Of a stretch of 39,981 nucleotides of DNA, positions 1 to 35,707 are shown piece after piece. The stretch spans positions 1 through 39,981 of the forward strand of contig DLKC01000007.1 of the NCBI GenBank assembly GCA_002478885.1, in the 5' to 3' direction. The stretch comes from Chitinophagaceae bacterium UBA7600. Its GTDB lineage: Bacteria > Bacteroidota > Bacteroidia > Chitinophagales > Chitinophagaceae. Position 1 is the first letter of the stretch; every line of letters starts with the position of its first letter. The notes below the pieces were generated by a model. It saw only the letters and a list, made by a program, of their open reading frames with translations, was not told where the DNA came from and searched no databases. The translations under genes were made by a program, and so were the position numbers.

Positions 1-19
1 TTGTGTCACTCACTTGTGC
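1..19 (-). repeat. Dispersed intergenic repeat, copy 1 (head only, decayed)
   Basis: Read on the minus strand, this is GCACAAGTGAGTGACACAA, a diverged version of the head ACAAGAGTGCGACGCAAC that recurs through the window. The same decayed variant (TGTCACTCACTTGT on the plus strand) is found at 9507-9526. The window edge cuts off the tail. Confidence 0.55.
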
Positions 20-160
20 TTCTTTTCTATGGGCATCGAAGAAGAACCGGGTTTGAAAGATTAATGCCTATTGCTTATTTCGTTTCCCACATATGGCATA
101 TAGGCATTGAAATTATTCCACATACCCTAAATTAAATCGGGCAACATTCTGCAAAGCATT

Positions 161-168
161 TAAATTTG
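161..168 (+). promoter_or_regulatory. Bacteroidota-type -7 box for the DUF885 gene
   Basis: TAAATTTG matches the Bacteroidota -7 consensus TAnnTTTG exactly and lies 13 bases before the ATG at 182, so the leader would be very short. I see no clear -33 TTTG at the usual spacing, so this is a partial promoter call. Confidence 0.45.
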
Positions 169-181
169 GCAAAGCCACTTT

Positions 182-1942
182 ATGAAATATGCAATTTTCG
201 TTCTTGTATTAGGCATTGCATGTGCATGCCGGAACGACCAGCCAGCAACCGGCAATGGCGATCAGCCTGGTTCTGCCGACAGCCTTTTCTCTGCATTTGA
301 AAACAGTTTCATCGATGCTTACTGGAAGCAAAATCCTTCAGCGGCCATTTACGCAGGCTATGGCAAATACTACGATATACTTAAAATACCTGATGCGGCT
401 TCTGTAAAAAGCGATGTTGATTTTGCAAAGCATTACCTCGATTCATTGCATGGGTTTAATTATGCATCGCTTTCTGCAAATAACAAAATCGATTACCGCA
501 TACTCGAGAACCAGTTCAATGGTACCATATGGTACAGCGATACGTTTAAGCAACAGGAATGGGATCCTTCAGTGTACAATATCGGTGGTGAATGCTACGA
601 GATCATTAATAATAGCTACGCACCACTTACTGAAAGGTTAAGAACGCTCAGCAGCCATATCGCGCATTCAGATGCTTATTATGCAGCCGCAATCAATATG
701 ATAAAGCAGCCTACGCGGGAACATGCGGATCTTGCAGTTAAGCAAAACAAAGGCAGCCTTGAAGTATTTGGCTCCATGCTGCAGGATTCAGTTAAGGCAT
801 CTTCGTTAACGGAAGTAGAAAAAGATACACTGTTGCAGCGTGCTGCAAGAACAAAACAGGCGATAAGCACTTATGCCGATGCACTGGAAAAAATGCTGGC
901 TGATAAAAATTTTGCTTTCCGCAATTTCAGGATCGGCGACAGCCTGTTTAACCAAAAGTTCAAATACGATATTGTTACCGACTATTCAGCTAAAGATATC
1001 TTTGATAAGGCAGTAGCCTCAAAGCAATATTACCACGCCCAAATGTTTACGATCACCAAAGAGCTGTGGCCGAAATATTTTGAAGGTGCAGCAATGCCGG
1101 CCGATACGCTACAGGCCATTAAAATGATGATCGACAAGATTGCCCTCAACCATGCAAGCCCTGAACATTTAGTAGATACCATCAATAAACAGGTAAATGA
1201 CCTCAAGCGTTTCATCATTGAAAAAGACTTGTTTGCATATGATACCACCACGCCCTTAAAGGTGCGTATTATGCCGGCATTTATGAGCGGCGCTACACTG
1301 GCCTCGGCGAGCCTTACAGGCCCTTACGACAAGCAGGGGGTTGCTTATTACAACATCAGCGATCTTACCAAAATCCCCAAAGCGGAAGCCGAGAGCGATC
1401 TGCGGGAGCACAATAATTACACCTTGCAAATATTGTCTATCCATGAAGCCATGCCGGGTCACGACCTGCAGGGATGGTATTCCAATAAATCGCGTAGTAT
1501 GGTAAAGGCTGTGTTTGGTAACGGCGCCATGATTGAAGGCTGGGCCGTTTACACCCAACGCATGATGCTTGATAACGGCTGGGCAAACAATGCACCCGAG
1601 ATGTGGCTGATGTTTTACAAATGGAGCCTGCGCGAATGCTGCAACGTAATCACCGATTATGGCATCCAGTGTCTTAACTACTCCAAAGAAGACGTGGTTA
1701 AAATGCTTAAGTACGAGGCTTTCCAGGAAGATGCGCAAATAGCGGAAAAATATCACCGGGCCACTATTTCGCAGGTACAGTTGTGCAGTTATTTTACGGG
1801 CGCAACCGAAATCAATGCTTTGCGTGAAGCCTACCATAAAAAGAAAGGTGATGCTTACAGCCTTAAAGATTTTCACGAAAAATTCCTGAGCTATGGAAGC
1901 GCGCCGGTTAAATATATTGGTGCATTAATGCTGGGTGAATAG
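182..1942 (+). CDS. DUF885 family secreted lipoprotein, putative metallopeptidase
   Basis: 586 residues. The N-terminus is a lipoprotein-type signal with cysteines at 14 and 16 (GIAC/ACAC), so the protein is probably anchored in the envelope. Near the C-terminal third, H421-E-A-M-P-G-H427 is the HExxPGH zinc-site signature of the DUF885 family, followed by a conserved E-G-W-A-V-Y segment that probably supplies a further ligand. Full length and the intact motif suggest an active zinc hydrolase. Members of this family are usually annotated only as DUF885 proteins, and the substrate is unknown (peptide cleavage is inferred from the zinc motif). It is transcribed alone and converges on the porin gene at 2090-3316. 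The ATG at 182 is the first in frame and begins the signal peptide. Confidence 0.88.
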   Translation: MKYAIFVLVLGIACACRNDQPATGNGDQPGSADSLFSAFENSFIDAYWKQNPSAAIYAGYGKYYDILKIPDAASVKSDVDFAKHYLDSLHGFNYASLSANNKIDYRILENQFNGTIWYSDTFKQQEWDPSVYNIGGECYEIINNSYAPLTERLRTLSSHIAHSDAYYAAAINMIKQPTREHADLAVKQNKGSLEVFGSMLQDSVKASSLTEVEKDTLLQRAARTKQAISTYADALEKMLADKNFAFRNFRIGDSLFNQKFKYDIVTDYSAKDIFDKAVASKQYYHAQMFTITKELWPKYFEGAAMPADTLQAIKMMIDKIALNHASPEHLVDTINKQVNDLKRFIIEKDLFAYDTTTPLKVRIMPAFMSGATLASASLTGPYDKQGVAYYNISDLTKIPKAEAESDLREHNNYTLQILSIHEAMPGHDLQGWYSNKSRSMVKAVFGNGAMIEGWAVYTQRMMLDNGWANNAPEMWLMFYKWSLRECCNVITDYGIQCLNYSKEDVVKMLKYEAFQEDAQIAEKYHRATISQVQLCSYFTGATEINALREAYHKKKGDAYSLKDFHEKFLSYGSAPVKYIGALMLGE

Positions 1943-2027
1943 TCTCCGTATTTGTACTGTTTGAAAACATCGCGATGAATGCTGTTACCTAAACGCGTCA
2001 TCTGTTGTTTGTTGCCAGGAGCACTGT

Positions 2028-2086
2028 TGTACAAGAGTGCGACGCAACTTAAGCTTGTTTGAATCGATGGTGCCGGGTACAAAAAA
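2028..2086 (+). repeat. Dispersed intergenic repeat, copy 2 (complete)
   Basis: The head occupies 2028-2048 (ACAAGAGTGCGACGCAAC preceded by TGT) and the tail ends in TGCCGGGTACAAAAAA at 2071-2086. This is one of the best complete copies, about 59 bp, filling the space between two convergent genes and stopping four bases short of the porin stop codon. Confidence 0.85.
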
Positions 2087-2089
2087 GTA

Positions 2090-3316
2090 TTAAAACAACA
2101 GCCTCATGATACCTAGTATGCGGAATGCCGAGCCCCTGGTATTATCGTAATTTTCTTTAACACCATAGAGCAATTCACCGCCTATTGTAAAATACTTATT
2201 GATGGCATAAACCGCATTGCCTGCGAAATAGCTGCTGTGTTTGAAAATAACATCGGTTGATTGCGGTTTTTCCTGGTGCAGGTAGCTATAAACATAAGTA
2301 GATGACCAGCGTTTTTTGAATACAAAACTGTACGAAACATAACCGCCATAATACAACAGCGACTCAAGTGTTATACTGTCTTTTGGAAAAGCTTCATAAC
2401 CTAATCCACCAAAATCGTTTACGGCGCCTTGGGTGCCATCGCCAATAATGCCAAAGAGATTAAACGATCTTTTCTTAATTCCAAGCAGGTTTGCTTTGTG
2501 GCTGTCCGGCAGGTCGATGCTGAGAGAACTGGTAACGCCCCAGGCGCCAAGTTTCTTCTTAAAGGAATAATCTTTATCGGTATATACAATTGGCTTATAA
2601 ATGACCGAGTTTGACCAATGCCCGTTTTTAAAAGTGTATTTTGGTTTTACAACAAGTTCGGGAAAAGCCGACTTTACCGCGTTTGCGCTGTCTAAAGGTG
2701 TATAATCGGCACGGGGTTCTTCTATTGCCAGCAGCAGGTTCCAGTTGCTGCTTATTTGTCTGCGCCATCTTATTTGTGCTACACGGGAAGCCGGCATGGA
2801 ATTAGGTCCTTCGAGATCTAGCGTGTTGGGTGATGCGTTAACGTCGCCAAAATTTGTCCAGGTTTGCCCTACGAGAAATTCGCCGGTGGTAAGATAGGCG
2901 TGCCTCAAACGGAAATAGGTATTCAGCCCCTTGGTGCTCGATAAAAAATCTCCTTCAACAAAAGCGGTGGTATTGTTACCGGCTTTAGGGAATTTAAAAG
3001 CAAAACCCAGCCTGCTCTGGTTGGCAGACATATGAAAGCGTTTGAATTTAATGTTGGTTATTTCGGTTGTCGGTATCTCGGAGGTTACAAAAACATCGTT
3101 GTTGAAAACGTTATTGTTATCGAAGTATAGTGCCGGTTGCACAAACCCGGAAATCTTTAACTCAGCGAACTCCGTAGCAAATGTCGGCTTTGCAGAGGGC
3201 TGATAACTGGTGTCGAGATTACTGTTTCGCTTCAGTGAATCGAATTCCGTTTGGCTTGCACCCTTTTTTGCGAAGCCTGCAAAGGCTAAAATAGAAAGTA
3301 GGAGATATTTGTTCAC
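2090..3316 (-). CDS. DcaP-like trimeric outer-membrane porin
   Basis: 408 residues with a Sec signal peptide (hydrophobic residues 4-16, likely cleavage near residue 21). After a short linker, the mature chain begins with the pattern ELKISGFVQPALYFDNN and carries on as amphipathic beta strands to a C-terminal aromatic residue (...IMRLLF), as expected for an outer-membrane barrel. The repertoire (RLRHAYL...GQTWTNFGD, then LEGPNS...QIRWRR) resembles the DcaP family of porins, which in known members pass small anionic substrates such as dicarboxylates. Substrate here is unknown. The start is GTG at 3316, just upstream of the signal peptide, with a TTTCTTTG-like -7 element a few bases further upstream. 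It is divergent from the serine hydrolase/deacylase gene at 3579. Confidence 0.75.
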   Translation of the reverse strand: MNKYLLLSILAFAGFAKKGASQTEFDSLKRNSNLDTSYQPSAKPTFATEFAELKISGFVQPALYFDNNNVFNNDVFVTSEIPTTEITNIKFKRFHMSANQSRLGFAFKFPKAGNNTTAFVEGDFLSSTKGLNTYFRLRHAYLTTGEFLVGQTWTNFGDVNASPNTLDLEGPNSMPASRVAQIRWRRQISSNWNLLLAIEEPRADYTPLDSANAVKSAFPELVVKPKYTFKNGHWSNSVIYKPIVYTDKDYSFKKKLGAWGVTSSLSIDLPDSHKANLLGIKKRSFNLFGIIGDGTQGAVNDFGGLGYEAFPKDSITLESLLYYGGYVSYSFVFKKRWSSTYVYSYLHQEKPQSTDVIFKHSSYFAGNAVYAINKYFTIGGELLYGVKENYDNTRGSAFRILGIMRLLF

Positions 3317-3473
3317 GAACGCAAAGAAATAAATATTTTATCATTTAAGCTAACCCTAAAAGATCTGGCAACGATTAATGCTTTGCTTGTTACGTTTTTA
3401 ACAGCTGAACCGCGCATGACCAACCTGCCAGCTTGTATTTGTTGCTGGCATGGCTGCACAGGGATTTACAATA

Positions 3474-3490
3474 AAAGAGTGCGACGCAAC
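3474..3490 (+). repeat. Dispersed intergenic repeat, copy 3 (head, tail decayed)
   Basis: AAAGAGTGCGACGCAAC matches the family head. Upstream bases (TTTACAATAA) look like the usual TGTACA start with a small insertion, and the following stretch ends in GTCCGGAACATAGAAA, a decayed tail. It is unusual in lying in a divergent promoter region rather than after a gene. Confidence 0.75.
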
Positions 3491-3578
3491 GATGTTCAAT
3501 AGCCGCACGATAGTCCGGAACATAGAAAATTGATTTACATTTATCCGGTACTACTGTTATGGTCTTCAAAAATTCATT

Positions 3579-6098
3579 ATGAGAAAAATTTTTGTTCTGC
3601 TCGCACTTGCGGTTACGCCTTTTTTTGTATCGGCCCAAACAAGCAACATAGCCGGTTCTCTCGATTCTGTTTTAAGTTATTTGTATACAACGCACCAGTT
3701 CAACGGCACGGTTTTATATGCGGAGAAGGGCAAGCCGGTATATGAAAAGGCATTTGGTATTGCGGACAGCAGAACGGGCACGGCACTTCAAACAAATTCG
3801 GCATTCAATCTTGCATCCGACACCAAGCAATTCATTTGCATGTGTATCATGATGCTCAAAGAAAAAGGTCAGCTTTCTTATGAAGATGACGTTACGAAAT
3901 ATATTCCCGAACTTCCTTATAAAGGCATTACGATACGCAACCTGATGACGCATACGTCGGGCTTACCCGAATACGATGTGCTGTTTCAACACATTCGCGG
4001 ACCACTTGATACACTCACCAATGACGGCATGATAAAGATGTTCGCTACCTTGAAGCCAGCCCTCGAATTTCCAACAGGCACTAAATGGCAATATTGCAAC
4101 ACAGGTTACATATTGCTTTCTGCGGTGGTATCACGAATTTCGAAAATGCCGACAGAAGAATTTGTCAACGACAATATTGTTATGCCCCTTGGGCTTAAGG
4201 AAACTTACTTGTATAATGTTTACTTGCCATCTCCTCAAAACCACGTGTATGGGTTTGAAGAAGTGAACGGTAAACAAAAACTCAATGATCTTTTCTACCT
4301 CGATGGCGTAACAGGTGATGGCAACATGTATTCGTCTGTTGAGGATCTCTTTAAATGGGAGCAAAGTCTTTACACCGGGAAACTGGTGAAGAAGGCAACT
4401 TATGCCGATGCGCTAAAACCTGTAAAGCTTAGCAACGATTCAACATACCCTTACGGCTTTGGATGGTTCATTGGAAAGGAAAATGAATTTTATTACCATA
4501 CAGGAAGCTGGGCAGGTTTCAGGAACATCATCTGCCGCGATACTAAAAATAACCGCACACTTATTATATTAAGCAACGGTACAAATGGAATGGCAAGACA
4601 GGTGGCAAGAAATATATTTGAAGGCAAATCCTATGAACTCCCTTCATTGCAGCTTATTACAAATGTGCTCGTAATCGACGGAACCAACACCCCGGCGAGA
4701 AAGGCGTCTGTTCGCATTAAAGACAATACGATTATGGCAGTCGGCGATCTTACTCCTTACCCCGGCGAAACCGTAATTGACGGCGCAGGCAAAACGCTAA
4801 CCCCCGGCTTTATAGATACTCATAGCCATCTCGACAGGTCGTTACAGGAAAAGCCCGAGGCCATCCCCGCATTGAACCAGGGTGTGACAACAGTTGTGGT
4901 TGGGCAGGATGGCGAAAGTGACCCGATTGATACAATGGAATTACGCATCCAACAGACACCTATCGCATTGAACATGGCAAGTTATACCGGCCAAACAACT
5001 TTGCGGGCAATGGTAATGGGCGAAAACGATTTGCACCGCGTGGCGACCGAAAAAGAAGTGGCTGCTATGAAATCATTGCTTGCCACTGAAATGAAAAATG
5101 GCTCACTGGGATTAGCAACCGGCCTCGAGTATGAAGGTTCGCATTTTTCATCGCGTGAAGAAGTGATAGAACTGGCGAAGACAGCTGCTGAATACCATGG
5201 CCGATATATCAGCCATATGCGCAGCGAAGATATCGGGCTTGCTGATGCCATTGACGAAATAGAACAAATTGGCCTGCAGGCGAAACTCCCCGTGCAGATA
5301 TCACATTTTAAGATTGCTTTGAAAGATGATTGGGGAACAGCACCAGCTATACTCGGCGACCTCGAAAACATGCGGAAACAATATGGTGTTAATATAACTG
5401 CCGACTGTTACCCTTATGAATATTGGTACAGCACCCTTCGGGTACTCTTTCCAAAAACCGATTACAGCAATTTGGAAAGCGCAAAGTTTGCTGTCGATCA
5501 AACAATCGACCCGTCTGGCTCTGTTGTATTTCCCTTCGCACCAAACAAAACTTATGAGGGCAAAACAATCAGTGAGATCGCTGCTATGCGTAACCAGTCG
5601 GCGGCACAAACCCTGATCGATCTTATTGTCATGGTCGATGATTTTGAAAAGAAAAACCCGGGTGTTGATGCGGAAGGCATCATCGGCAAGTCAATGAAAG
5701 ATGAAGATATCATCAAATTGCTGTCGTGGGCCAATACCAATATCTGTTCCGATGGCGGCGGCGGCGGGCATCCACGCAGTCATGGTGCATTCACCCGCGT
5801 GCTTGGCTATTACGTACGGGAGAGAAAAATAATGAGCCTTGAAAATGCCATTTATAAAATGACCGCTTTGGCAGCCGAACATGTTGGCCTTGCCGATCGC
5901 GGCCTCATAGCGCCTGGCTATTATGCCGACCTGGTGCTGCTCGACCCCGCAACTGTAAAAGACAACGCCACCATACAAAACCCGACCGCTTTGTCAGATG
6001 GCATCCTTAAAGTTTGGGTGAATGGAAAAATTGTTTTTGAAAACAAGCAGCCCACACACCAGTATCCCGGAATGTTTTTAAAGAGAGCTGCAGAGTAA
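3579..6098 (+). CDS. Secreted fusion: serine beta-lactamase/DD-peptidase-like domain + N-acyl-D-amino-acid deacylase
   Basis: 839 residues with a Sec signal peptide (residues 1-19). Residues about 25-350 form a class C beta-lactamase/D-aminopeptidase-type serine hydrolase: S80-D-T-K83 (SxxK), Y172-C-N174 (YxN) and H307-T-G (KTG-like box). Residues about 360-839 form an amidohydrolase of the D-aminoacylase type: metal motif D-T-H415-S-H417, then the QISHFK and SHMRSE segments, and a late CSDGGGGGHPRSHGAFTRVLGYY block typical of N-acyl-D-amino-acid deacylases. Each half is about the length of a stand-alone enzyme. Known members of the two families act on D-residue peptides and on N-acyl-D-amino acids, so a two-step release of free D-amino acids in the periplasm is a reasonable inference. 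The next two genes on the same strand fit D-glutamate or muropeptide use. Confidence 0.88.
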   Translation: MRKIFVLLALAVTPFFVSAQTSNIAGSLDSVLSYLYTTHQFNGTVLYAEKGKPVYEKAFGIADSRTGTALQTNSAFNLASDTKQFICMCIMMLKEKGQLSYEDDVTKYIPELPYKGITIRNLMTHTSGLPEYDVLFQHIRGPLDTLTNDGMIKMFATLKPALEFPTGTKWQYCNTGYILLSAVVSRISKMPTEEFVNDNIVMPLGLKETYLYNVYLPSPQNHVYGFEEVNGKQKLNDLFYLDGVTGDGNMYSSVEDLFKWEQSLYTGKLVKKATYADALKPVKLSNDSTYPYGFGWFIGKENEFYYHTGSWAGFRNIICRDTKNNRTLIILSNGTNGMARQVARNIFEGKSYELPSLQLITNVLVIDGTNTPARKASVRIKDNTIMAVGDLTPYPGETVIDGAGKTLTPGFIDTHSHLDRSLQEKPEAIPALNQGVTTVVVGQDGESDPIDTMELRIQQTPIALNMASYTGQTTLRAMVMGENDLHRVATEKEVAAMKSLLATEMKNGSLGLATGLEYEGSHFSSREEVIELAKTAAEYHGRYISHMRSEDIGLADAIDEIEQIGLQAKLPVQISHFKIALKDDWGTAPAILGDLENMRKQYGVNITADCYPYEYWYSTLRVLFPKTDYSNLESAKFAVDQTIDPSGSVVFPFAPNKTYEGKTISEIAAMRNQSAAQTLIDLIVMVDDFEKKNPGVDAEGIIGKSMKDEDIIKLLSWANTNICSDGGGGGHPRSHGAFTRVLGYYVRERKIMSLENAIYKMTALAAEHVGLADRGLIAPGYYADLVLLDPATVKDNATIQNPTALSDGILKVWVNGKIVFENKQPTHQYPGMFLKRAAE

Positions 6099-6107
6099 GA
6101 AGATTTT

Positions 6108-6158
6108 GTTGCCGGCTTTAGCAAAATGGCATCGCCTCTTGCGTCGCACACTTGTACA
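6108..6158 (-). repeat. Dispersed intergenic repeat, copy 4 (complete, minus strand)
   Basis: On the plus strand the tail comes first (GTTGCCGGCTTTAGC) and the head, TTGCGTCGCACACTTGTACA, ends at 6158. The spacer GATGCCATTT between head and tail also occurs at 15203-15212 (reverse strand), and its GATGCCA part at 21333-21339, which shows that conservation extends beyond the head. Confidence 0.82.
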
Positions 6159-6283
6159 GCGATTCTTTATTCAGCCAGGAGATCAGTAATCGGGTCATTC
6201 ACTCTGTAATTATCAATACCGCAGAATAATGCCACAGCCTGTTTCAAGATTTCTGCATATTGCTCAGCAAAGAATAAAGCGCT

Positions 6284-6300
6284 GAAGAGTGCACTGCAAC
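6284..6300 (+). repeat. Dispersed intergenic repeat, copy 5 (decayed)
   Basis: GAAGAGTGCACTGCAAC keeps most positions of the head. A tail-like stretch ending in GGAAACCAAAAAAAT follows at about 6330-6352. With copy 4 it forms a head-to-head inverted pair. Confidence 0.5.
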
Positions 6301-6412
6301 GCATGCTTCATTTCTTTGCCAATGCTGGAAACCAAAAAAATACTGTTTTGCAGGTAGCGCTACAAATAATATCTTGAACGCCTAATTTAAAAAGTTATCA
6401 ATAAAGCCAGGT

Positions 6413-7496: not shown

Positions 7497-7550
7497 AAAT
7501 GCGACGCAACGAAGTTTCACAAAGGTTATAAAGCTTGGCTCAAAATAATT
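7497..7550 (+). repeat. Dispersed intergenic repeat, copy 6
   Basis: Head AAATGCGACGCAAC at 7497-7510, spacer starting GAAGTTTCAC, and a tail AAAGCTTGGCTCAAAATAA at 7530-7548. An in-frame TTG at 7535 in this tail creates a false upstream start for the epimerase gene. Confidence 0.75.
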
Positions 7551-7570
7551 TTCACAGTAAGAACAATTCA

Positions 7571-9441: not shown

Positions 9442-9506
9442 GGAAAGCATCATTGTAACAGTGCTTATGTATTTTGATGATCGGCTTTTGTCCTGCCGGC
9501 AACTTC

Positions 9507-9526
9507 GTTGTGTCACTCACTTGTAC
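9507..9526 (-). repeat. Dispersed intergenic repeat, copy 7 (decayed, minus strand)
   Basis: GTTGTGTCACTCACTTGTAC on the plus strand is the inverted head, with the same TCACTCAC variant seen at 1-19. It faces copy 8 about 60 bases away, and both are flanked by CTTTTG/CAAAAG, so the pair could fold into one long imperfect hairpin. Confidence 0.7.
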
Positions 9527-9586
9527 GGTAGAGCCATGAGCGGCAACCCATAAACTTCAGGCAAATCCGGCTCAAAGCTGTTTTGC

Positions 9587-9646
9587 TGTACAAGTGCGCG
9601 ATGCAACAAAAGCCTTACGGTTATACTAAAGCCGGGCCTGCAAAAT
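9587..9646 (+). repeat. Dispersed intergenic repeat, copy 8 (complete)
   Basis: The head at 9587-9607 reads TGTACAAGTGCGCGATGCAA plus C, and the tail at about 9628-9646 reads ACTAAAGCCGGGCCTGCAA. It is the plus-strand partner of copy 7. Confidence 0.78.
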
Positions 9647-9732
9647 TTCCTGCCTGATATATACCTTAGAGAGGGTATGATTGATGCAGGCAATCCGGTT
9701 ATCTTTATGCGTAAATGTAAAACCCGAATACC

Positions 9733-13105: not shown

Positions 13106-13170
13106 GTCAGGAAGTGGTTGTGCAAAAAACAATCGAAAACCTCTTGCGTTGCTGTTGCTTTTTTTACTGT

Positions 13171-13230
13171 TGTACAAGTGTGCGACGCAACAATGCAAAA
13201 TTGAAATACTCCAGCCCGGCTCCTAAAAAC
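13171..13230 (+). repeat. Dispersed intergenic repeat, copy 10 (complete)
   Basis: The head at 13171-13191 reads TGTACAAGTGTGCGACGCAA plus C. The tail at about 13215-13230 reads CAGCCCGGCTCCTAAA. It lies 154 bases after the caspase gene stop. Confidence 0.82.
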
Positions 13231-13306
13231 TCATCTTCAAAAACCGGATTGCCTGGGCCTTCTACAATCATACATTATTTGCAGGCATATTCTTTATGTT
13301 TGCAAA

Positions 13307-15178: not shown

Positions 15179-15189
15179 GTAGATTTTTT

Positions 15190-15241
15190 GGTAACCAGCG
15201 CAAGTGCAAATGGCATCTTCCGTTGCGTCGCACGCTTGCGC
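15190..15241 (-). repeat. Dispersed intergenic repeat, copy 11 (minus strand)
   Basis: The inverted head GTTGCGTCGCACGCTTGCGC ends at 15241. Its tail side (GGTAACCAGCGCAAGTGCAA at 15190-15209) is altered, but the spacer ATGGCATC is conserved. It pairs head-to-head with copy 12. Confidence 0.78.
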
Positions 15242-15341
15242 TGCAGAGCACAGGTCGGGTAGACGAAGTCTGAAATTCACTAAAGCTGGCACCAAAACAT
15301 GGTAATCACTTTCGGTTCGCCTTGCTGAGTTATGGAATAAA

Positions 15342-15403
15342 TGCACAAGAGTGCGACGCAAGCAAAGCCATATGGTTGAGCTGCAGCCCGGCTCAAAAAA
15401 AAT
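15342..15403 (+). repeat. Dispersed intergenic repeat, copy 12 (complete)
   Basis: Head TGCACAAGAGTGCGACGCAA at 15342-15361 and tail GCAGCCCGGCTCAAAAAAAA ending near 15402, immediately before the aminotransferase stop on the opposite strand. About 100 bases separate it from copy 11. Confidence 0.85.
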
Positions 15404-15418
15404 CTGTGAATAAAAAAG

Positions 15419-21287: not shown

Positions 21288-21369
21288 CGCGTCGCACAAA
21301 GACTCAGTTGCACAAGAGTGCGACGCAAGGGACGATGCCACCGGGTTGCCAAAGCCGGGCACAAAAAAA
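21288..21369 (+). repeat. Dispersed intergenic repeat, copy 13 (complete) with a partial inverted head
   Basis: A partial inverted head (CGCGTCGCACA, 21288-21298) is followed after ten bases by a full plus-strand copy: head TTGCACAAGAGTGCGACGCA at 21308-21327, spacer GACGATGCCA, tail AAAGCCGGGCACAAAAAAAG at 21351-21370. This is the clearest example of the consensus, and its A-tract runs into the sulfatase terminator. Confidence 0.88.
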
Positions 21370-21397
21370 GAATCATGCTGCAGTGCATGATTCTTTT
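21363..21397 (-). terminator. Terminator of the sulfatase gene, joined to a repeat tail
   Basis: A perfect 12-base-pair stem (AAAAGAATCATG at 21366-21377 with its complement at 21386-21397), extendable by one C-G pair. On the minus strand it is followed by seven T residues that are the complement of the repeat's A-tract, so the repeat supplies the U-tract. The stem starts 24 bases after the sulfatase stop. It also ends in TTTT on the plus strand, so it may work both ways. Confidence 0.8.
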
Positions 21398-22827: not shown

Positions 22828-23268
22828 AGTTGACTTTTTTAATTTGGATAATAAAAGTTTGATTTCAGGGTACAGCTCAATTATAAAAAATTATGCAGCA
22901 GATGATTAAAGTAATGTTTAAGGGTTAAGAAATCAAAATTATGGTTTATAATTGATTTTTGCGCGGCAAACTGCGCATTGCTTTTTAAATTTTAATAGGT
23001 CTAACTTGTATTTAATTAAATAACCGCGTCGGTTTTATTATGTAATAAAACAGATACAAGGATTTATGAGGTTGCCTTTTCAAAAAAAATACTGTTGCTT
23101 TTTTGTACCCGGCTTTAACGCGTGCCCGGGCATCGTTGCGTCGCACTCTTGTGCATCATAACATAAGTCAGCAAAATTTGTCAGCAATTAATAGGGAGTA
23201 CGTTGCCAACACTTTTTTGCATGCTGCTTTATAAAAGCCGGGAATAATACGGCCATATAATAATTTCG
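22828..23268. other. Divergent AT-rich intergenic region
   Basis: No gene. It contains a possible minus-strand -7 box for the sulfatase (TATAATTG, plus-strand 22878-22885), a perfect palindrome GTTTTATTA-TG-TAATAAAAC at 23032-23051 that could be an operator or a weak hairpin, and a full dispersed repeat at 23095-23155. Just before the propeller gene, TAATTTCG at 23261-23268 resembles a -7 box, which matters for choosing its start. Confidence 0.5.
23095..23155 (-). repeat. Dispersed intergenic repeat, copy 14 (complete, minus strand)
   Basis: The plus strand shows the inverted tail TTTTTTTGTACCCGGCTTTA first and the inverted head GTTGCGTCGCACTCTTGTGC ending at 23154. The tail starts TTGTAC and the head in other copies starts TTGTAC, so the element has short matching ends. 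Confidence 0.87.
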
Positions 23269-27273: not shown

Positions 27274-27309
27274 AAGTAAAAAATCTTCCTGCTGCATATT
27301 GAACGGAAC

Positions 27310-27329
27310 GCACAGGGGTGCGACGCAAC
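27310..27329 (+). repeat. Dispersed intergenic repeat, copy 15 (head)
   Basis: GCACAGGGGTGCGACGCAAC, the head with two changes. No clear tail follows before the FAH gene promoter region. Confidence 0.72.
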
Positions 27330-27444
27330 CGGCGCTGATTGTAATACATAAGCTGGTAACCCAACCATCGCAACACATGTGATAACAGATCGGTGTTGGT
27401 TGAAAAAATCGCCTATTTTTACCCGCCTTTAAACGCAAAGTTTT

Positions 27445-28455
27445 ATGAAATTAGTTTCTTACCTGAATGATGGACACGACCAGCTTGCATTTTTAGTCAA
27501 TGATTTGTTGTTTGACACCGACATGATGCATCCTGAATTGCCATCGTCGATGAATATGTTTTTGAATTATTGGGAAGAGAATTATGCTATTGCCATGCAG
27601 GTAAATGCAGCGATTGAAAGTGGCCGGATTGCAAGAACAAATGGGCGGTCGCTCGAAGAGGTGCAACTGCTTTCTCCCGTACCTTTTCCCACAAGCTGCC
27701 GCGATGGATACGCCTTTCGCCAGCACGTGGAAGCAGCGCGACGTGGCCGTAAAGTGCCAATGATTCCTGAGTTTGATCAATTCCCAATCTTTTATTTTAC
27801 CAATCATCACAGCATACAGGGCCCTGGCGATATCGTTTGCATGCCCGACCATTTCGAAAAACTCGATTTTGAATTGGAAGTGGCAATCGTTATCGGTAAG
27901 CAGGGAAGAAACATCAAGGCCGCGGAGGCCGATGAATATATTGCGGGTATCATGATCATGAACGATATGAGTGCACGCAAATTGCAGGGCGAAGAGATGA
28001 TGCTTAACCTGGGGCCTGCAAAAGGTAAAGATTTTGCGACTGCCGTGGGACCTTGCATGGTTACAATGGACGAACTCGCTGCCATGGAAATACCTGCAAA
28101 AGAAAACCATACAGGTAAAGCCTGGAATCTTACGATGAGGTGTTTTGTGAACGGGATAAAAGTGAGTGAAGGAAATGTGGGTGATATGGATTGGACATTT
28201 GCTGAAATCATCGAACGCTGTTCCTACGGCGTAACATTATATGCCGGCGACATCATTGGCAGCGGCACTGTTGGCACCGGTTGTTTCCTGGAACTCAATG
28301 GCACTGGTAAGCTCAATGATCCGAACTACGAAGAGCAATGGCTGAAAGAGGGTGATGTTGTAGAGATGGAAGTAGACGGCATTGGCAAACTAAGCAACAC
28401 GATTGTAAAAGAGGAAAGTGATTTTTCTATTCTGGCTTTAAAAAAATTAGGTTGA
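27445..28455 (+). CDS. Fumarylacetoacetate hydrolase (FAH) family protein
   Basis: 336 residues, cytoplasmic. An N-terminal small domain precedes the FAH fold. Metal-site segments are visible: the Glu pair in DFELEVAIVIGKQGRN, and NDMSARKLQGEEM, GKDFATAVGPCMVT and GDIIGSGTVGTG. Family members hydrolyse or decarboxylate C-C bonds in 3-oxo acids, for example in tyrosine or aromatic catabolism. At 336 residues with an extended N-terminus it is closer to fumarylacetoacetase-like proteins than to the short HpcE type, but no homogentisate dioxygenase is nearby, so the substrate is unknown. The flavin-reductase gene on the same strand, 104 bases downstream, may be functionally linked. Confidence 0.88.
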   Translation: MKLVSYLNDGHDQLAFLVNDLLFDTDMMHPELPSSMNMFLNYWEENYAIAMQVNAAIESGRIARTNGRSLEEVQLLSPVPFPTSCRDGYAFRQHVEAARRGRKVPMIPEFDQFPIFYFTNHHSIQGPGDIVCMPDHFEKLDFELEVAIVIGKQGRNIKAAEADEYIAGIMIMNDMSARKLQGEEMMLNLGPAKGKDFATAVGPCMVTMDELAAMEIPAKENHTGKAWNLTMRCFVNGIKVSEGNVGDMDWTFAEIIERCSYGVTLYAGDIIGSGTVGTGCFLELNGTGKLNDPNYEEQWLKEGDVVEMEVDGIGKLSNTIVKEESDFSILALKKLG

Positions 28456-28519
28456 TTTTTTAGGAGCAGGCAATTAAATCATTACCCACCGCCTGTTGTG
28501 CTATAGTGCCGGCTATCCG

Positions 28520-28537
28520 GCATCACTCACTTAGGCG
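28520..28537 (-). repeat. Possible decayed dispersed repeat, copy 16
   Basis: GCATCACTCACTTAGGCG resembles the TCACTCACTTGT variant of the inverted head, with a CCGGC-containing stretch on its tail side at about 28508-28520. Weak on its own. Confidence 0.35.
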
Positions 28538-28559
28538 TTTCGAACATTATTGAACGTAA

Positions 28560-29450
28560 ATGCTAACAATAGAATTAAAAGATCTGAAACCTGCACAAAA
28601 GCAAAACTGGCTGCAACACGCAATCGCGCCAAGGCCTATTGCTTTCGCAAGCACCGTTGATGCAAAAGGTAATGTGAACCTTAGTCCATTCAGTTTTTTC
28701 AATATGTTCTCTTCACATCCACCGGTGCTGATCTTTTCGCCTGCAAGAAGAGTGAGAGATAATACTACCAAACATACCCTGCAAAATATTCTTGAGATTC
28801 CGGAAGTAGTCGTCAACATCTGTGACTACGATATGCTGCAACAGGTGAGCCTGTCAAGTTGCGAATTTTCAAAAGGTACTGATGAGTTTTTGAAAGCAGG
28901 CTTTAACAAGGAAGCCGCATTGCATATAAAACCACCCATGGTTAAGGAAGCAAAGGTGAAACTGGAATGCAAAGTACTCGAGGTTAAAAGTCTTGGCAAG
29001 GAAGGAGGTGCCGGGCAGTTGGTGATTGCGGAGATCATCTGCATGCATGTAGCCGAAAGCATTCTTACAGAAGATGGAAGCATGATTGACCAGCGTAAGC
29101 TACACCATATTGCAAGAATGGGCGGCGACTGGTACAGCGTAATAAATGAATCAGGTTTGTTAAGGGTACCAAAACCAAACCTGCAGTTGGGTATTGGTGT
29201 TGATGCGCTGCCGGAGAGTATAAGAAGAAGCAACATACTCACGGGCAACAACCTTGGTATGCTTGGCAATGTGCATGAAGAACCCGTTGTTGATGCAACA
29301 TTCGAAGATGACCGGTTAAAAAATATTATTCAATATTATTCCATAAGCCCCGACGAAATGGAAGCGGAACTGCACATCTATGCGAAGGAATTGCTGGACG
29401 CTGGTAAATTATACGAGGCATGGCAGGTATTGCTGGCTTCCGATATTTAA
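28560..29450 (+). CDS. Flavin reductase-like FMN-binding protein (DIM6/NTAB family)
   Basis: 296 residues, cytoplasmic. The N-terminal 200 residues fit the FMN-binding split barrel of the flavin reductase-like family: APRPIAFASTVDAKGNVNLSPFSFFN and the FSPARRVRDNTTKHTL block are typical FMN/phosphate contacts. The C-terminal 90 residues (SIRRSNILTGNNLGMLGNV...EELLDAGKLYEAW) are an extension seen in long Bacteroidota members. Such proteins either supply reduced flavin or act as flavin oxygenases; the partner is unknown. Same strand as the FAH gene, with a decayed repeat and about 100 bases between, so probably the same transcript. Confidence 0.87.
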   Translation: MLTIELKDLKPAQKQNWLQHAIAPRPIAFASTVDAKGNVNLSPFSFFNMFSSHPPVLIFSPARRVRDNTTKHTLQNILEIPEVVVNICDYDMLQQVSLSSCEFSKGTDEFLKAGFNKEAALHIKPPMVKEAKVKLECKVLEVKSLGKEGGAGQLVIAEIICMHVAESILTEDGSMIDQRKLHHIARMGGDWYSVINESGLLRVPKPNLQLGIGVDALPESIRRSNILTGNNLGMLGNVHEEPVVDATFEDDRLKNIIQYYSISPDEMEAELHIYAKELLDAGKLYEAWQVLLASDI

Positions 29451-29470
29451 GTGTCGCTAATGGTTATGCA

Positions 29471-29520
29471 GTACAGGAGTGCGACGCAAGGGACGTTGCA
29501 TAAACAAACAAAGCCGGGCT
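29471..29520 (+). repeat. Dispersed intergenic repeat, copy 17 (complete)
   Basis: Head GTACAGGAGTGCGACGCAAG at 29471-29490, spacer GGACGTTGCATAAACAAAC, tail AAAGCCGGGCT ending at 29520. The tail is the left arm of a terminator stem (next entry). Confidence 0.82.
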
Positions 29521-29529
29521 AACCCGGCT
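29500..29529 (-). terminator. Terminator of the TIM-barrel gene, built on a repeat tail
   Basis: Stem AGCCGGG (29512-29518), loop CTAA, CCCGGCT (29523-29529), a perfect seven-pair GC-rich hairpin. On the minus strand it is followed by TTGTTTGTTTATG, a T-rich run. It lies 32 bases after the stop of the minus-strand gene at 29562. Confidence 0.75.
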
Positions 29530-29561: not shown

Positions 29562-30389
29562 TCATTTCAGCGATCTGAGGTAACCAAGGCTTTGCGGTAT
29601 TTGTTCAACAGGGTGACTCGATTCGTCTTCGATAAAACAATATTGTATTCGTTGCTTTTTCGCCTCTTTCATAACGGCGGCAATACCTACATCGCCTGTT
29701 CCAAGCACCACATTTGATTCCTCATCTGCACGGCCATCGAGACTGTTGGGCGTACCGGGTTTCCTGTCTTTTAAATGCAGCAGCTTAAACCTGCCGGAAT
29801 ACTTTTTCATTAAAGCCACGGGATCCTGGCCTGGTTGCTTCATCCAGAAAACATCCATTTCAAAACTTACATATTTGGGATCGAGGTTTTGCATAAGATA
29901 GTCAAAGAGCGTTCCGTTTTCGTATGGCAGGAATTCATAGCCGTGTGCATGATAACAGAAGGTAAGCCCGTTCTCAGTAAACAGTTTTCCCGCTTTATTA
30001 AAAACAGCGACTGCATTCTTGGCGTCATCAATTGTAAAGCCTTTTGAATCGTGTGGTATCCACGCGCACATGATATATTTTGCCCCGAAGAACTTTGCAT
30101 TATCGATAATCGGCTGCGGGTTTTCTGAAAGCTGTTTAAAATCGGCACCAACGCTTATGGTTTTTATCCCGTTATCGTCAAGTAGTTTTTTGAAAGCTTC
30201 CGGCGTCATACCATAACTGTCGCCACCTTCCACTTCGGTGATCCCCATTTTTTTGATGGTTTCAACAGTGCCTTTTACGTCGGTTTTAAATTGATTGCGG
30301 AACGAATATAGCTGTACGCCGATATGCTGTGCACCGGCGGTCATGCAGCCGATAAAACTCAGAAAAGAAATAAGTGCAAATTTTTTCAT
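29562..30389 (-). CDS. Secreted sugar phosphate isomerase/epimerase-like TIM-barrel protein
   Basis: 275 residues with a Sec signal peptide (residues 1-20; a possible lipobox IGC at residue 15 is weak). The mature part is an AP-endonuclease-2/xylose-isomerase-like TIM barrel: IGVQLYSFRNQF at strand 1, EVEGGDSYG, the metal-ligand segments CYHAHGYEF, SFEMDVFWM, LHLKDRKPG and FIEDESSH. Most sugar isomerases of this fold are cytoplasmic; exported versions are common in Bacteroidota, with unknown substrates (oxidised or modified sugars are often suggested). It lies 21 bases downstream of the M19 dipeptidase gene in the same direction, so the two are probably co-transcribed. Confidence 0.88.
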   Translation of the reverse strand: MKKFALISFLSFIGCMTAGAQHIGVQLYSFRNQFKTDVKGTVETIKKMGITEVEGGDSYGMTPEAFKKLLDDNGIKTISVGADFKQLSENPQPIIDNAKFFGAKYIMCAWIPHDSKGFTIDDAKNAVAVFNKAGKLFTENGLTFCYHAHGYEFLPYENGTLFDYLMQNLDPKYVSFEMDVFWMKQPGQDPVALMKKYSGRFKLLHLKDRKPGTPNSLDGRADEESNVVLGTGDVGIAAVMKEAKKQRIQYCFIEDESSHPVEQIPQSLGYLRSLK

Positions 30390-31580: not shown

Positions 31581-31636
31581 AATGATAAGTTTGTAACCTG
31601 AATATAAAGTAATAATATTTTTAGTTGATGGAAATT

Positions 31637-33249: not shown

Positions 33250-33253
33250 TGAT

Positions 33254-33324: not shown

Positions 33325-33327
33325 GAA

Positions 33328-33915: not shown

Positions 33916-34381
33916 CGCTTACGAAGCTGGCGAGGCTGGTTATATCATCAGCACAGACACGGCAAAACTTAACATCGGTCTTATTCATCATTACCTTTCC
34001 CGGGAATCATATTGGGCGCAGGGTATTCCGCGGGCCATCGTCGAAAAGTCAATCACGAATTCGATCTGCTTCGGCATTTATAAAACCGGTGAACAGGTCG
34101 GTTTCGCCAGGGTGGTTTCTGACAAGGCTACCTTCGCCTATCTCGCCGATGTGTTTGTGTTGCCTGCATATCGTGGTAAAGGGTTAAGCAAATTTTTGAT
34201 GAAAACTATTCATGCACATCCCGATCTGCAGAACCTGCGCAGGTGGTGGCTGGGTACAAAAGATGCACACGGTCTTTATGCGCAGTTTGGGTGGACGCTC
34301 ATCAACGAAGACGTGGCCAAACGATTTATGCAGTTACATAACCCCGATGTTTACAAAAATTCTTCACCGCAACAGGAATAA
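33908..34381 (+). CDS. GNAT family N-acetyltransferase
   Basis: 157 residues, cytoplasmic. The acetyl-CoA-binding motif A, VFVLPAYRGKGLSKFLM (R-G-K-G), and a C-terminal LYAQFGW block are typical for GNATs. The N-terminal region (YLSRESYWAQGIPRAIVEKSI) matches a common small-GNAT subgroup that is widespread and functionally undefined. Substrate unknown. The ATG at 33908 overlaps the end of the pseudouridine-synthase gene by eight bases, so the two are translationally linked. Confidence 0.88.
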   Translation: MNSAYEAGEAGYIISTDTAKLNIGLIHHYLSRESYWAQGIPRAIVEKSITNSICFGIYKTGEQVGFARVVSDKATFAYLADVFVLPAYRGKGLSKFLMKTIHAHPDLQNLRRWWLGTKDAHGLYAQFGWTLINEDVAKRFMQLHNPDVYKNSSPQQE

Positions 34382-34480
34382 GCGCCGGCTGTTAAGCCCG
34401 TGCTATAATCCGCGCAACAGTATCTGTACAATAGCCGGCACGGCAATAACACGCGTGTTTGTTGCACAGTGCTCCGGAAG

Positions 34481-34540
34481 TTGAAGCGTGCGACGCAACG
34501 AAGTTGAATTGCGTTTCAAAAGCAGGGCCCATAAAACAAA
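34481..34540 (+). repeat. Dispersed intergenic repeat, copy 18
   Basis: Head TTGAAGCGTGCGACGCAAC at 34481-34499 and a tail CAAAAGCAGGGCCCATAAAA at 34518-34537. It lies between the GNAT and pheS genes. Confidence 0.75.
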
Positions 34541-34596
34541 ATCAGCAATCGGTAGCCTGCATTTACGGTTAGCCACATTAATATTATCTTCGCCGC

Positions 34597-35628
34597 ATGG
34601 AAAATCTGGTGCAACAGTTAGAGCAATATAAAAATGAAATTGCAGCGTACGAGGCCAACACCGCCGCGGCAGTGGAAGCTTACCGCATAAAATATCTCGG
34701 TACAAAAGGCATTGTGAAAGCCGTGATGGGTGAAATGAAAAACGTGCCTAACGATCAAAAAAAATCTTTCGGTTTACTCCTGAACGAGTTCCGGCAGATC
34801 GCTGAAGCAAAGTATGAAACACTAAAAGCGGCTTTAACAGGCAATCAAACAGAGCCCGCAGAAACATTCGACTCTACCCTGCCCGGCGATGTGTATCCCC
34901 TTGGGTCGAGGCACCCGATCTCTATTGTTCGTAAAAATATCATCGACATTTTTCACCGCCTTGGCTTTGCAGTTGCAGAAGGCCCGGAAATAGAAGACGA
35001 CTGGCACAACTTCGGTGCTATGAACCTGCCGGCCGATCACCCGGCCCGCGACATGCAGGATACTTTTTACATCAACAAAAATCCTGATTGGTTATTGCGC
35101 ACGCATACAAGCAGTGTGCAGGCGCGGGTAATGGAAAAACAAAAGCCACCGATCCGCGTCATTTGCCCCGGCCGTGTTTACAGGAATGAAACGATCAGCG
35201 CAAGGGCCCACTGCTTCTTTCACCAGGTTGAGGGGCTGTGTATCGATGATAATGTAAGCTTTGCTGATCTTAAGCAAACGCTCTATTTCTTTGTGCAGGA
35301 AATGTTCGGCAAAACAGTAAAAATCCGTTTTCGCCCTTCTTATTTCCCGTTTACCGAGCCAAGTGCCGAAATGGATATCAGTTGCCTCATCTGTGGCGGC
35401 GATGGTTGTAATGTTTGCAAACATACCGGCTGGGTAGAAATTCTGGGAAGCGGCATGGTGCACCCCAGGGTGCTCGAAAATTTTGGCATCGATTCCAACA
35501 AATACACCGGCTTTGCATTTGGCATGGGCATGGAGCGTATCTGCCAGTTAAAATACCGCGTTAACGACCTGCGCTTATATTCACAAAACGATGTGCGGTT
35601 TTTAAAACAATTTACCAGCGCAAGGTAA
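34597..35628 (+). CDS. pheS: Phenylalanine--tRNA ligase alpha subunit
   Basis: 343 residues, cytoplasmic. N-terminal coiled coil (residues 1-85) for tRNA, then the class II catalytic core: motif 2 in GRVYRNETISARAHCFFHQV, and motif 3 in GFAFGMGMERICQL. Together with the beta subunit it charges tRNA-Phe as a heterotetramer; pheT is not in this window. A Cys-rich insertion (CLICGGDGCNVCKHTGW, CxxC twice) before the EILGSGMVHP block looks like a small zinc knuckle and occurs in many Bacteroidota PheS proteins. A TATCTTCG element shortly upstream may be its -7 box. Terminator at 35658-35690. Confidence 0.97.
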   Translation: MENLVQQLEQYKNEIAAYEANTAAAVEAYRIKYLGTKGIVKAVMGEMKNVPNDQKKSFGLLLNEFRQIAEAKYETLKAALTGNQTEPAETFDSTLPGDVYPLGSRHPISIVRKNIIDIFHRLGFAVAEGPEIEDDWHNFGAMNLPADHPARDMQDTFYINKNPDWLLRTHTSSVQARVMEKQKPPIRVICPGRVYRNETISARAHCFFHQVEGLCIDDNVSFADLKQTLYFFVQEMFGKTVKIRFRPSYFPFTEPSAEMDISCLICGGDGCNVCKHTGWVEILGSGMVHPRVLENFGIDSNKYTGFAFGMGMERICQLKYRVNDLRLYSQNDVRFLKQFTSAR

Positions 35629-35657
35629 ATACGCATGGCGTATTAGAATTTTTTTGG

Positions 35658-35690
35658 GCCCTGCAGCATAACGCTGTGGGGCTTTTCTTG
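35658..35690 (+). terminator. Rho-independent terminator of pheS
   Basis: Ten-pair stem with two G-U pairs (GCCCTGCAGC 35658-35667, GCTGTGGGGC 35673-35682), loop ATAAC, then TTTTCTT. It ends where a dispersed repeat head begins, so it replaces the usual tail of that copy. Confidence 0.78.
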
Positions 35691-35707
35691 CGTCGCACAC
35701 TTGTACA
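35688..35707 (-). repeat. Dispersed intergenic repeat, copy 19 (head, minus strand)
   Basis: TTGCGTCGCACACTTGTACA, identical to copy 4 in the head. Its tail position is taken by the pheS terminator hairpin. Confidence 0.82.

What the first reader, a model, noticed from the sequence alone, without database searches (positions are those of the whole stretch)
1..35707. A dispersed ~60-bp intergenic element with conserved head and tail
The head ACAAGAGTGCGACGCAAC, a spacer often starting GATGCCA, and the tail AAAGCCGGGCACAAAAAA (or GCCCGGCTC/GCCGGGTAC variants) recur. Clear copies are at 2028, 3474, 6108, 7497, 9587, 13171, 15190, 15342, 21308, 23095, 27310, 29471, 34481 and 35688; decayed ones are at 1, 6284, 9507, 13087 and 28520. 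All lie between confident genes, on both strands, mostly just after stop codons, which is roughly one per two kilobases. This looks like a REP/BIME- or MITE-like family specific to this lineage. I know of no described family with this sequence, but I cannot search.
Basis: seen in the sequence. Interest (0 to 1): 0.8.

Follow-up and report, generated by a model that had tools for sequence, protein, structure and literature searches.

The report
Alternating bracket motif between bacterial genes
About two thousand copies of a directional, roughly 80-letter DNA signal sit between the genes of this bacterium, keep an almost unchanging 11-letter core, and tend to point alternately left and right along the chromosome; this fits no kind of bacterial repeat tested here and may mark the boundaries of gene segments.

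Summary
It is not a typical REP/REPIN: no fold, no consistent Y1 (RAYT) linkage, and the richest genome has no Y1 match. The unit is ~80 bp with three boxes at rigid spacing (TTGCTGAATA; GTACAAGWGTGCGACGCAAC; AGCCGGGTACA plus A-run). The 11-bp core is nearly invariant (129 exact, 11 one-mismatch neighbours in 432 kb), while flanks compared without gaps are ~40% alike; two core 'dialects' exist. Copies lie between genes, often with the tail within ~15 nt of a stop codon. Orientation alternates along the chromosome: across one gene 233 opposite, 33 same. Place and orientation are conserved in orthologous gaps, for example at both ends of pheS in three genera. I read this as a selectively maintained polar site, most likely bound by an unidentified protein that brackets segments of one to a few genes. 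Protein and function are unknown. Rivals: domesticated transposon ends, polar roadblocks, an uptake signal. Eight searches of a held open-access library returned no description.

The parts
1..43 (-). element, cut by the window edge; dialect 2 core (GAGTGACACAA)
   Evidence: profile E 2e-4; listed
2007..2091 (+). element, dialect 1 core; between DUF885 gene (182-1942,+) and DcaP-like gene (2090-3316,-), tail end at the latter's stop
   Evidence: profile E 8e-13
3450..3531 (+). element, dialect 1; divergent gap, tail towards gene 3579-6098
   Evidence: E 2e-10
6097..6179 (-). element, dialect 1; tail end meets the stop codon of gene 3579-6098; head-to-head with the next
   Evidence: E 2e-15
6258..6341 (+). 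element with changed core (TGAAGAGTGCACTGCAA); tail towards gene 6413-7465
   Evidence: E 1e-6
7500..7552 (+). element, variant core ATGCGACGCAA with AACGAA upstream
   Evidence: E 6e-9
9468..9547 (-). element, dialect 2; tail towards stop of gene 8728-9441; head-to-head pair with the next
   Evidence: E 4e-11
9570..9647 (+). element, dialect 1 with two changes (GCGCGATGCAA); tail towards gene 9733-13017
   Evidence: E 3e-9
13152..13231 (+). element, dialect 1; tail towards gene 13307-14164
   Evidence: E 1e-13
15181..15253 (-). element, dialect 1; tail end meets stop of gene 14180-15178; head-to-head pair with the next
   Evidence: E 6e-12
15320..15404 (+). element, dialect 1; tail end close to stop of gene 15419-16675 (-)
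   Evidence: E 5e-16
21291..21372 (+). element, dialect 1; tail towards stop of gene 21421-22827 (-)
   Evidence: E 1e-11
23099..23176 (-). element, dialect 1; divergent gap
   Evidence: E 1e-13
27286..27364 (+). element, dialect 1; tail towards gene 27445-28455
   Evidence: E 4e-13
28454..28559 (-). decayed element; tail towards stop of gene 27445-28455, so this gene is bracketed + ... -
   Evidence: E 3.5e-5
29452..29521 (+). element, dialect 1; begins just after stop of gene 28560-29450, tail towards stop of gene 29562-30389 (-)
   Evidence: E 1e-11
34457..34539 (+). element, dialect 1; 58 bp upstream of pheS, tail towards pheS
   Evidence: E 9e-16; same side and orientation in six other genomes
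34597..35625 (+). pheS (phenylalanyl-tRNA synthetase alpha), bracketed by + and - elements
   Evidence: Pfam tRNA-synt_2d E 3e-98; bracket at both ends in 5 of 11 genomes
35645..35730 (-). element, dialect 1; 20 bp after pheS, tail towards its stop
   Evidence: E 4e-15

Best explanation
Each copy is a polar, composite DNA site of about 80 bp: three boxes (head TTGCTGAATA; core GTACAAGWGTGCGACGCAAC or, in dialect 2, ACAAGTGAGTGACACAAC; tail AGCCGGGTACA plus A-run) at rigid spacing. I infer that a sequence-specific double-stranded-DNA-binding protein, or a few paralogues with two specificities, contacts all three boxes. Sites are kept at gene-segment edges with the tail towards the genes. Successive sites face each other alternately tail-to-tail across one to a few genes and head-to-head across gaps. 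The inferred work is architectural: bound proteins mark or bridge the ends of segments (median + to - distance about 2.6 kb), dividing the chromosome into bracketed segments and short gaps. SHOWN: sequence anatomy, intergenic placement, core constraint, alternation in the copy-rich genomes sampled, conservation of place and orientation at the loci compared. INFERRED: a protein, its oriented pairing, and an architectural role.
For: Core: 129 exact GTGCGACGCAA versus 11 for all 33 one-mismatch neighbours in 432 kb; 132 versus 16 in 400 kb of G163; dialect 2: 39 vs 7 and 67 vs 5. Flank identity between copies, ungapped, averages 0.38 and 0.41. Rigid spacing: tail box at +33/+34 in 320 of 364 copies, head box at -29/-28 in 241 of 364. 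Core dialect is coupled to a tail-box base 38-39 bp away (z 5.0, n 274; z 4.6, n 388), as expected if one binder reads both. Intergenic: 1 of 178 and 6 of 206 cores overlap called genes, each within 40 nt of the gene's edge; 9 of 350 in four further stretches. Where the tail faces a stop codon, it ends within about 15 nt of it in 91 of 209. Alternation: across exactly one gene +- 130, -+ 103, ++ 15, -- 18; without a tandem gene array 216 versus 33. It goes by neighbour rank: at 1-3 kb first neighbours face the same way in 62 of 394, second neighbours in 211 of 253. In 4 of 4 genomes tested it exceeds shuffles of the same intergenic strings (0.87 vs 0.70, 0.84 vs 0.61, 0.82 vs 0.65, 0.79 vs 0.62). 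Weak copies between same-facing neighbours mostly restore alternation (34 of 46, p 0.002). Conservation: G163 vs G081, 22 conserved long gaps: both 12, only G163 4, neither 6, p 0.003; 14 orthologous element pairs: core 97% identical, positions beyond -14 and +14 25-57%. Both pheS ends carry the element in the same orientation in 5 of 11 genomes, from 3 genera. Over 264 orthologue pairs, ends with conserved neighbours share elements (odds ratios 18 to infinite, p 0.003 to 7e-11).
Against: No binding protein is known; apart from Y1_Tnp I searched for none. Segments between + and - are not transcription units: 26% of adjacent genes inside multi-gene ones are on opposite strands. Copy number is very uneven, even within a genus (g4: 463 and 0; g26: 822, 7, 0), so the function is not essential in the family. 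In sparse genomes alternation at >=1 kb is weak (G128 60 of 93) or absent (G004 22 of 46), from the first 100 of 140 and 50 of 166 places. Spacing is more regular than random in G163 and G081, not in G171 or G000. Tail-facing elements of orthologues whose neighbour differs agree only weakly (OR 2.9, p 0.008; OR 2.4, p 0.06). Gapped local comparison shows more kinship between copies than the ungapped figure: best matches have median identity about 85% over 48-62 nt, and single copies match dozens of places in a congener at 80-100% over 30-70 nt, so part of the flanks does show common descent.
Confidence: 0.4

Rival explanations
1. The elements are ends of an old mobile element: the unit is a head-to-head pair (- ... 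+, tails outward, ends reading 5'-TG..CA-3') that inserts as a whole, with 0-3 genes inside; pairs and alternation come from whole-unit insertion, and the ends were later domesticated.
For: Nearly all close pairs are head-to-head: in the five sampled genomes below 300 bp 191 '-+' against 13 '+-' and 3 same-facing, and 9 of 9 below 1 kb in two other genera. Whole-unit insertion gives alternation for free. Copy number differs greatly between relatives. Single genes inside '- gene +' are shorter (median 252 against 588 aa). Copies show common descent in gapped comparison.
Against: Few close copies: a best match of >=95% over >=60 nt for 2 of 178 (G000), 3 of 206 (G163, one a locus hit twice) and 0 of 350 in four other stretches; those I looked at are neighbours or local duplications. 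Neutral ends would not keep an 11-mer with so few one-mismatch forms. Places are shared between genera. Genes in '-..+' segments of 1-3 genes are not richer in paralogues (0.13 against 0.16). No Y1 match in G163.
Confidence: 0.25
2. A polar transcription roadblock or insulator: a bound protein stops RNA polymerase arriving from one side, confining or shielding transcription of the bracketed genes.
For: Tails often sit directly after stop codons; convergent gaps are most often occupied (27 of 34 and 30 of 34, against 24 of 47 and 23 of 45 divergent); terminator-like hairpins are somewhat rarer in convergent gaps with a tail-facing element (63 of 164 against 32 of 60, p 0.049; reversed-sequence control 205 of 1063).
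Against: No such depletion in tandem gaps (97 of 303 against 89 of 245, p 0.32); element orientation relative to tandem genes is nearly even (49 against 59, 59 against 69); the segments are not transcription units.
Confidence: 0.17
3. A DNA uptake signal (like DUS/USS) spread by biased uptake in natural transformation.
For: Short invariant core in two dialects, depleted one-mismatch forms, both strands, one copy per 1.9-2.4 kb in two genomes, conserved at orthologous places.
Against: Almost no copies inside genes, a ~80-bp three-box motif, and alternation of orientation, none of which is a recalled property of uptake signals.
Confidence: 0.08
4. A REP/REPIN family moved by a RAYT.
For: Intergenic, high copy, head-to-head dimers dominate as in many REP families (passages of PMC3733652). 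Some Bacteroidetes RAYTs are flanked only by 'atypical secondary structures' (subclass 2.6, passages of PMC6006769), and two RAYT-like genes here (L011 in this genome, L160 in G081) have copies on both sides.
Against: No palindrome or fold, no helix-like covariation, no Y1_Tnp match in the richest genome, 15 of 30 Y1 loci without any copy nearby.
Confidence: 0.04

Closest known systems
REP / REPIN / BIME elements (GTAG and CGTC superfamilies)
   Same: Many short intergenic copies; head-to-head dimers dominate in many families (PMC3733652 passages); alternation of orientation inside BIMEs (PMC2817692, start of abstract in a search listing).
   Different: No hairpin with a GTAG/CGTC-tagged stem; about 80 bp with three boxes; near-invariant core; alternation across whole genes; no consistent RAYT link; places conserved between genera.
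DNA uptake sequences (Neisseria DUS, Pasteurellaceae USS)
   Same: Short invariant core, dialects, both strands, high density (features recalled; general description in PMC7965970, section 16).
   Different: Almost absent from genes; long composite motif; orientation alternates.
Bacterial MITEs (ERIC, Correia, RUP; recalled)
   Same: Short intergenic non-coding units, inverted arrangement of ends.
   Different: No target-site duplication or partner IS shown; core kept far better than flanks; halves often separated by genes.
Oriented boundary sites such as CTCF sites in animals (recalled; analogy only)
   Same: Polar, asymmetric sites whose relative orientation matters.
   Different: No protein, loop or insulation shown here.

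Membership tests
REP/REPIN | palindromic unit folding as a hairpin | tested here: not met
   mean fold z between -0.14 and +0.10 on both strands, 60 of 364 copies; no helix-like covariation in 662 of 808 copies split into two length classes (one complementary-type coupling at positions 15/19, too close for a helix)
REP/REPIN | cognate RAYT/TnpA-REP gene flanked by the element | tested here: not met
   no Y1_Tnp match in G163, which has most copies; 15 of 30 Y1 loci have no copy in the flanks held, 4 have copies on both sides
REP/REPIN | intergenic, often as inverted dimers | tested here: met
DUS/USS | short core with depleted near-matches, both strands | tested here: met
   forward/reverse 1207/1213 in G163
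DUS/USS | also found inside genes (recalled feature) | tested here: not met
   1 of 178 and 6 of 206 overlap called genes, at their edges
DUS/USS | promotes uptake of DNA | not testable with these tools
   needs a transformation assay
MITE | terminal inverted repeats with target-site duplications and recent near-identical copies | tested here: inconclusive
   few close copies; no strain-level empty sites available; target-site duplications not measured
structured RNA family | conserved fold or Rfam match | tested here: not met
   4 Rfam matches up to E 1 in the window, none at an element
small protein gene | constant open reading frame | tested here: not met
   best frame open in 0.55 of 366 copies against 0.19-0.39 in the other five; tail offset 33 or 34 about equally, so no fixed frame
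intrinsic terminator | GC hairpin followed by T run within the element | tested here: not met
   no fold signal; terminator-like hairpins are still found in gaps with elements

The most novel reading that the evidence does not exclude
Some Chitinophagaceae carry a chromosome-wide orientation code: thousands of polar binding sites, kept by selection for very long times, that alternate in direction and so bracket segments of one to a few genes; a bacterial counterpart, in logic though not in descent, of oriented boundary sites in animal chromosomes, run by an undiscovered DNA-binding protein with two specificities.
Probability: 0.35. Interest if true: 0.93.

Novelty: categorically new. Interest (0 to 1): 0.82.

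Why it matters
If the reading holds, bacteria can have a genome-wide, direction-sensitive set of boundary sites at the scale of one to a few genes, which none of the kinds compared here (REP, MITE, uptake signal, terminator) predicts. It gives direct tests for how bacterial chromosomes are divided, and a natural experiment: species of one genus with 0 and with 463 core matches. Even under the mobile-element rival, the near-invariant core beside much less constrained flanks and the alternation across genes need an explanation.

Tried and rejected
(1) RAYT linkage: Y1_Tnp search and flank check; not supported, although L011 and L160 have copies on both sides of a RAYT-like gene. (2) RNA structure: Rfam, fold z-scores, mutual information; no fold. 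(3) Tiny ORF read from tail to head: attractive by eye, rejected by frame tests. (4) Recent copies: none above 0.8 in ungapped flank comparison except one locus hit twice; in gapped comparison 2 of 178 and 3 of 206 have a best match >=95% over >=60 nt. (5) Deletion of direct repeats as the cause of alternation: rejected because second neighbours at the same distance face the same way. (6) Fixed pair spacings of 51 and 58 bp: most of the 51-bp pairs come from one tandem gene array in G163, so I do not claim quantised spacing; alternation and the preference of close pairs for different dialects (58 same of 144, 83.7 expected, p 2e-5) survive without that array. (7) Strict spacing of segments: the peak near 2.5 kb in G163 is partly that array; regularity is modest. 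(8) Synteny in the first region chosen: 8 (G171-G092) and 22 (G163-G081) reciprocal best hits, too few. (9) Low-copy genomes: 16 loci read by eye; several copies lie beside ordinary housekeeping genes, no common cognate gene seen; in 3 of 16 the core fell within an ORF as called, near its end. (10) Viral contigs hold few copies (7 and 11 stretches with an exact 18-mer); not followed. (11) The first gene caller put 19 of 178 copies inside genes; the codon-based caller 1. (12) Weak point of the orthologue comparison: finding an element leans on its core, so a relative with a broken core counts as absent; all 14 strand-matched pairs found by profile entered the 97% figure. Among 21 shorter conserved gaps 17 had no element, 4 one in one species only.
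Full report
OBSERVATION. The head motif is present 13 times in the window at up to three mismatches against 0.16 expected, and a profile finds 18 elements, all outside called genes. In the whole genome (G000, 5.47 Mb, 105 contigs) GAGTGCGACGCAA has 1,398 matches at <=1 mismatch and 569 exact ones; the reversed pattern gives 3 and 0. In 432 kb of it (window plus 20 stretches) a profile finds 178 copies at E<1e-3, with nothing better than E 0.11 in the reversed sequence, which extrapolates to about 2,200 per genome. A relative held as one contig, G163, has 206 in its first 400 kb.

WHERE IT OCCURS. Of 294 genomes drawn from the family (own included), 177 have at least one match to AAGNGNGYGACRCAA and 22 at least 100; the largest counts are G163 2,420, G230 2,327, G171 2,292, G092 1,733, G081 1,606, G000 1,600. 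All 23 genomes of other families of the order examined had no exact GAGTGCGACGCAA. Within one genus counts range from 463 to 0 (g4) or 822 to 7 and 0 (g26). I take the family to be Chitinophagaceae from the named neighbours in a PheS tree. Among 80 named PheS loci only a Segetibacter MAG has copies (2 in 21 kb).

ANATOMY. Three boxes: head TTGCTGAATA at -29/-28 (241 of 364 copies), core GTACAAGWGTGCGACGCAAC, tail AGCCGGGTACA at +33/+34 (320 of 364) followed by an A-run. Two core dialects, GTGCGACGCAA and GAGTGACACAA, differ at three fully coupled positions (267 and 97 of 364) and are coupled to one tail-box base; minor cores TTGCGACGCAA and ATGCGACGCAA exist (8 and 3 in G163's 400 kb). There is no fold, no covarying helix, no constant reading frame and no Rfam match at an element.

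CONSTRAINT. In a k-mer count that does not use the profile, the core is present 129 times and its 33 one-mismatch neighbours together 11 times; in G163 132 and 16; for the second dialect 39 and 7, 67 and 5. Flanks of different copies, compared without gaps, are on average 38-41% identical; with gaps, best matches within the samples have median identity near 85% over 48-62 nt, and single copies match dozens of places in a congener at 80-100% over 30-70 nt. So the copies are kin, but the core is kept far better than the rest; a neutral, ageing repeat should have many one-mismatch cores. In 14 orthologous element pairs between G163 and G081 (median protein identity of orthologues 73%) the core is 97% identical, -4..-1 93%, -8..-5 75%, +11..+13 62%, and the rest 25-57%. 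One of the 14 has switched dialect and one has the TTGC variant.

PLACEMENT. With a codon-based gene caller 1 of 178 and 6 of 206 cores overlap genes, each within 40 nt of an edge; in four further stretches 9 of 350 elements do. Where the tail faces a stop codon, 91 of 209 tails end within about 15 nt of it; heads facing a stop lie that close less often (35 of 193 with the stop up to 49 nt from the core). Occupied gaps >=80 bp: convergent 27 of 34 and 30 of 34, tandem 91 of 152 and 90 of 136, divergent 24 of 47 and 23 of 45.

ALTERNATION. In 2.02 Mb from five genomes (910 elements, E<0.01), gaps hold '+' 253 times, '-' 237, '-+' 191, '+-' 12 and others 5. Below 300 bp 191 successive pairs are '-+' and 16 anything else. 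Across exactly one gene orientation alternates in 233 of 266, or 216 of 249 without a tandem gene array of G163; across two genes 152 of 200, across three 78 of 119. At 1-3 kb first neighbours face the same way in 62 of 394, second neighbours in 211 of 253, so the rule follows rank, not distance, and deletion between direct repeats cannot explain it. Shuffling the strings among the same occupied gaps gives clearly less alternation in each of four genomes; for G092, with few copies, 43 of 61 successive pairs alternate and no shuffle was done. Weak copies between same-facing neighbours restore alternation in 34 of 46. In two sparser genomes close pairs are all '-+' (9 of 9); at >=1 kb alternation is 60 of 93 in G128 and 22 of 46 in G004, from the first 100 of 140 and 50 of 166 places, so its range is not general. 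In the window itself 12 of 17 successive pairs alternate (counted).

CONSERVATION OF PLACE. Of 22 conserved gene pairs with gaps >=80 bp in G163 and G081, 12 have elements in both, 4 only in G163, none only in G081, 6 in neither (p 0.003); orientations agree or one string is part of the other in all 12. Of 21 conserved pairs with a shorter gap 17 have none and 4 an element in one species only; one further pair had changed gene orientation. pheS has '+' 52-74 bp upstream and '-' 4-20 bp downstream in G000, G081, G163, G171 and G230 (three genera); of the other six genomes with a match G090 and G125 have only an upstream one, G092 only a downstream one, and G024, G120 and G003 none. Over 264 orthologue pairs presence is strongly correlated where the neighbour gene is also conserved; where it differs, only tail-facing elements still correlate, weakly. 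These comparisons lean on the profile, which leans on the core: a copy with a broken core may count as absent.

INTERPRETATION. Selection on the site itself, at each place, is the simplest reading of constraint plus conserved place. A non-palindromic motif with three rigidly spaced boxes, no fold and dialect coupling across 38 bp points to a DNA-binding protein complex. Alternation and the head-to-head rule say that sites act, or arose, in oriented pairs. Close head-to-head pairs prefer different dialects (58 same of 144, expected 83.7), which may avoid perfect palindromes or reflect two binders. I therefore favour an architectural bracket system (0.4) over domesticated transposon ends (0.25), a polar transcription roadblock (0.17) and an uptake signal (0.08). 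The novelty label rests on the tested failures of REP, RNA, ORF, terminator and DUS membership, not on a proven mechanism; a reader who prefers the mobile-element rival would call it a new variant of dispersed intergenic repeats.

LITERATURE. Eight library searches; no title or abstract start in their listings points to this element, and the six papers that hold a core string are on unrelated subjects by title. Seen: passages of PMC3733652 and PMC6006769, passages and section 16 of PMC7965970; PMC2817692 only as a search listing with the start of its abstract. Subscription papers and preprints were not searchable, so absence in print is not shown. Properties of DUS/USS, MITEs and CTCF are recalled.

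Noticed in passing
G163 C1:252286-297471 (L179-L181): Tandem array of 17 genes of 768-819 aa (FtsX/MacB-like by eye), many of whose gaps carry a head-to-head element pair with exact cores.
   Followed up: partly
L009 1950-2100: A different palindrome-like repeat (TACCAATATTTTGTCCCTNNNGGGAC) lies next to an IS200-like Y1 gene; by eye it looks like a more likely REP partner of such genes.
   Followed up: no
L010 2036-3033: Three direct copies of a 373-bp unit (similar ORFs CNPESFLPENALMAEVRRDM...) beside a Y1 gene.
   Followed up: no
gaps inside head-to-head pairs, e.g. G171 and G163: Several gaps hold word-like inverted repeats (GTCGACTGTC, TTTTCACTTTTGAC, AAGCTCATAGC) different from the element.
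   Followed up: no
window 9733-13014: 1094-aa protein with WD40-type propellers and a C-terminal caspase-like (Peptidase_C14) domain.
   Followed up: no
L019 (G012 contig 205): An element copy sits between genes that read as RNA polymerase beta and beta' by eye, in a genome with few copies.
   Followed up: no
L232/L248, L234/L239, L240/L245: Three IMG/VR viral contigs carry two or more exact 18-mer heads each; they may be prophage calls that include host DNA.
   Followed up: no
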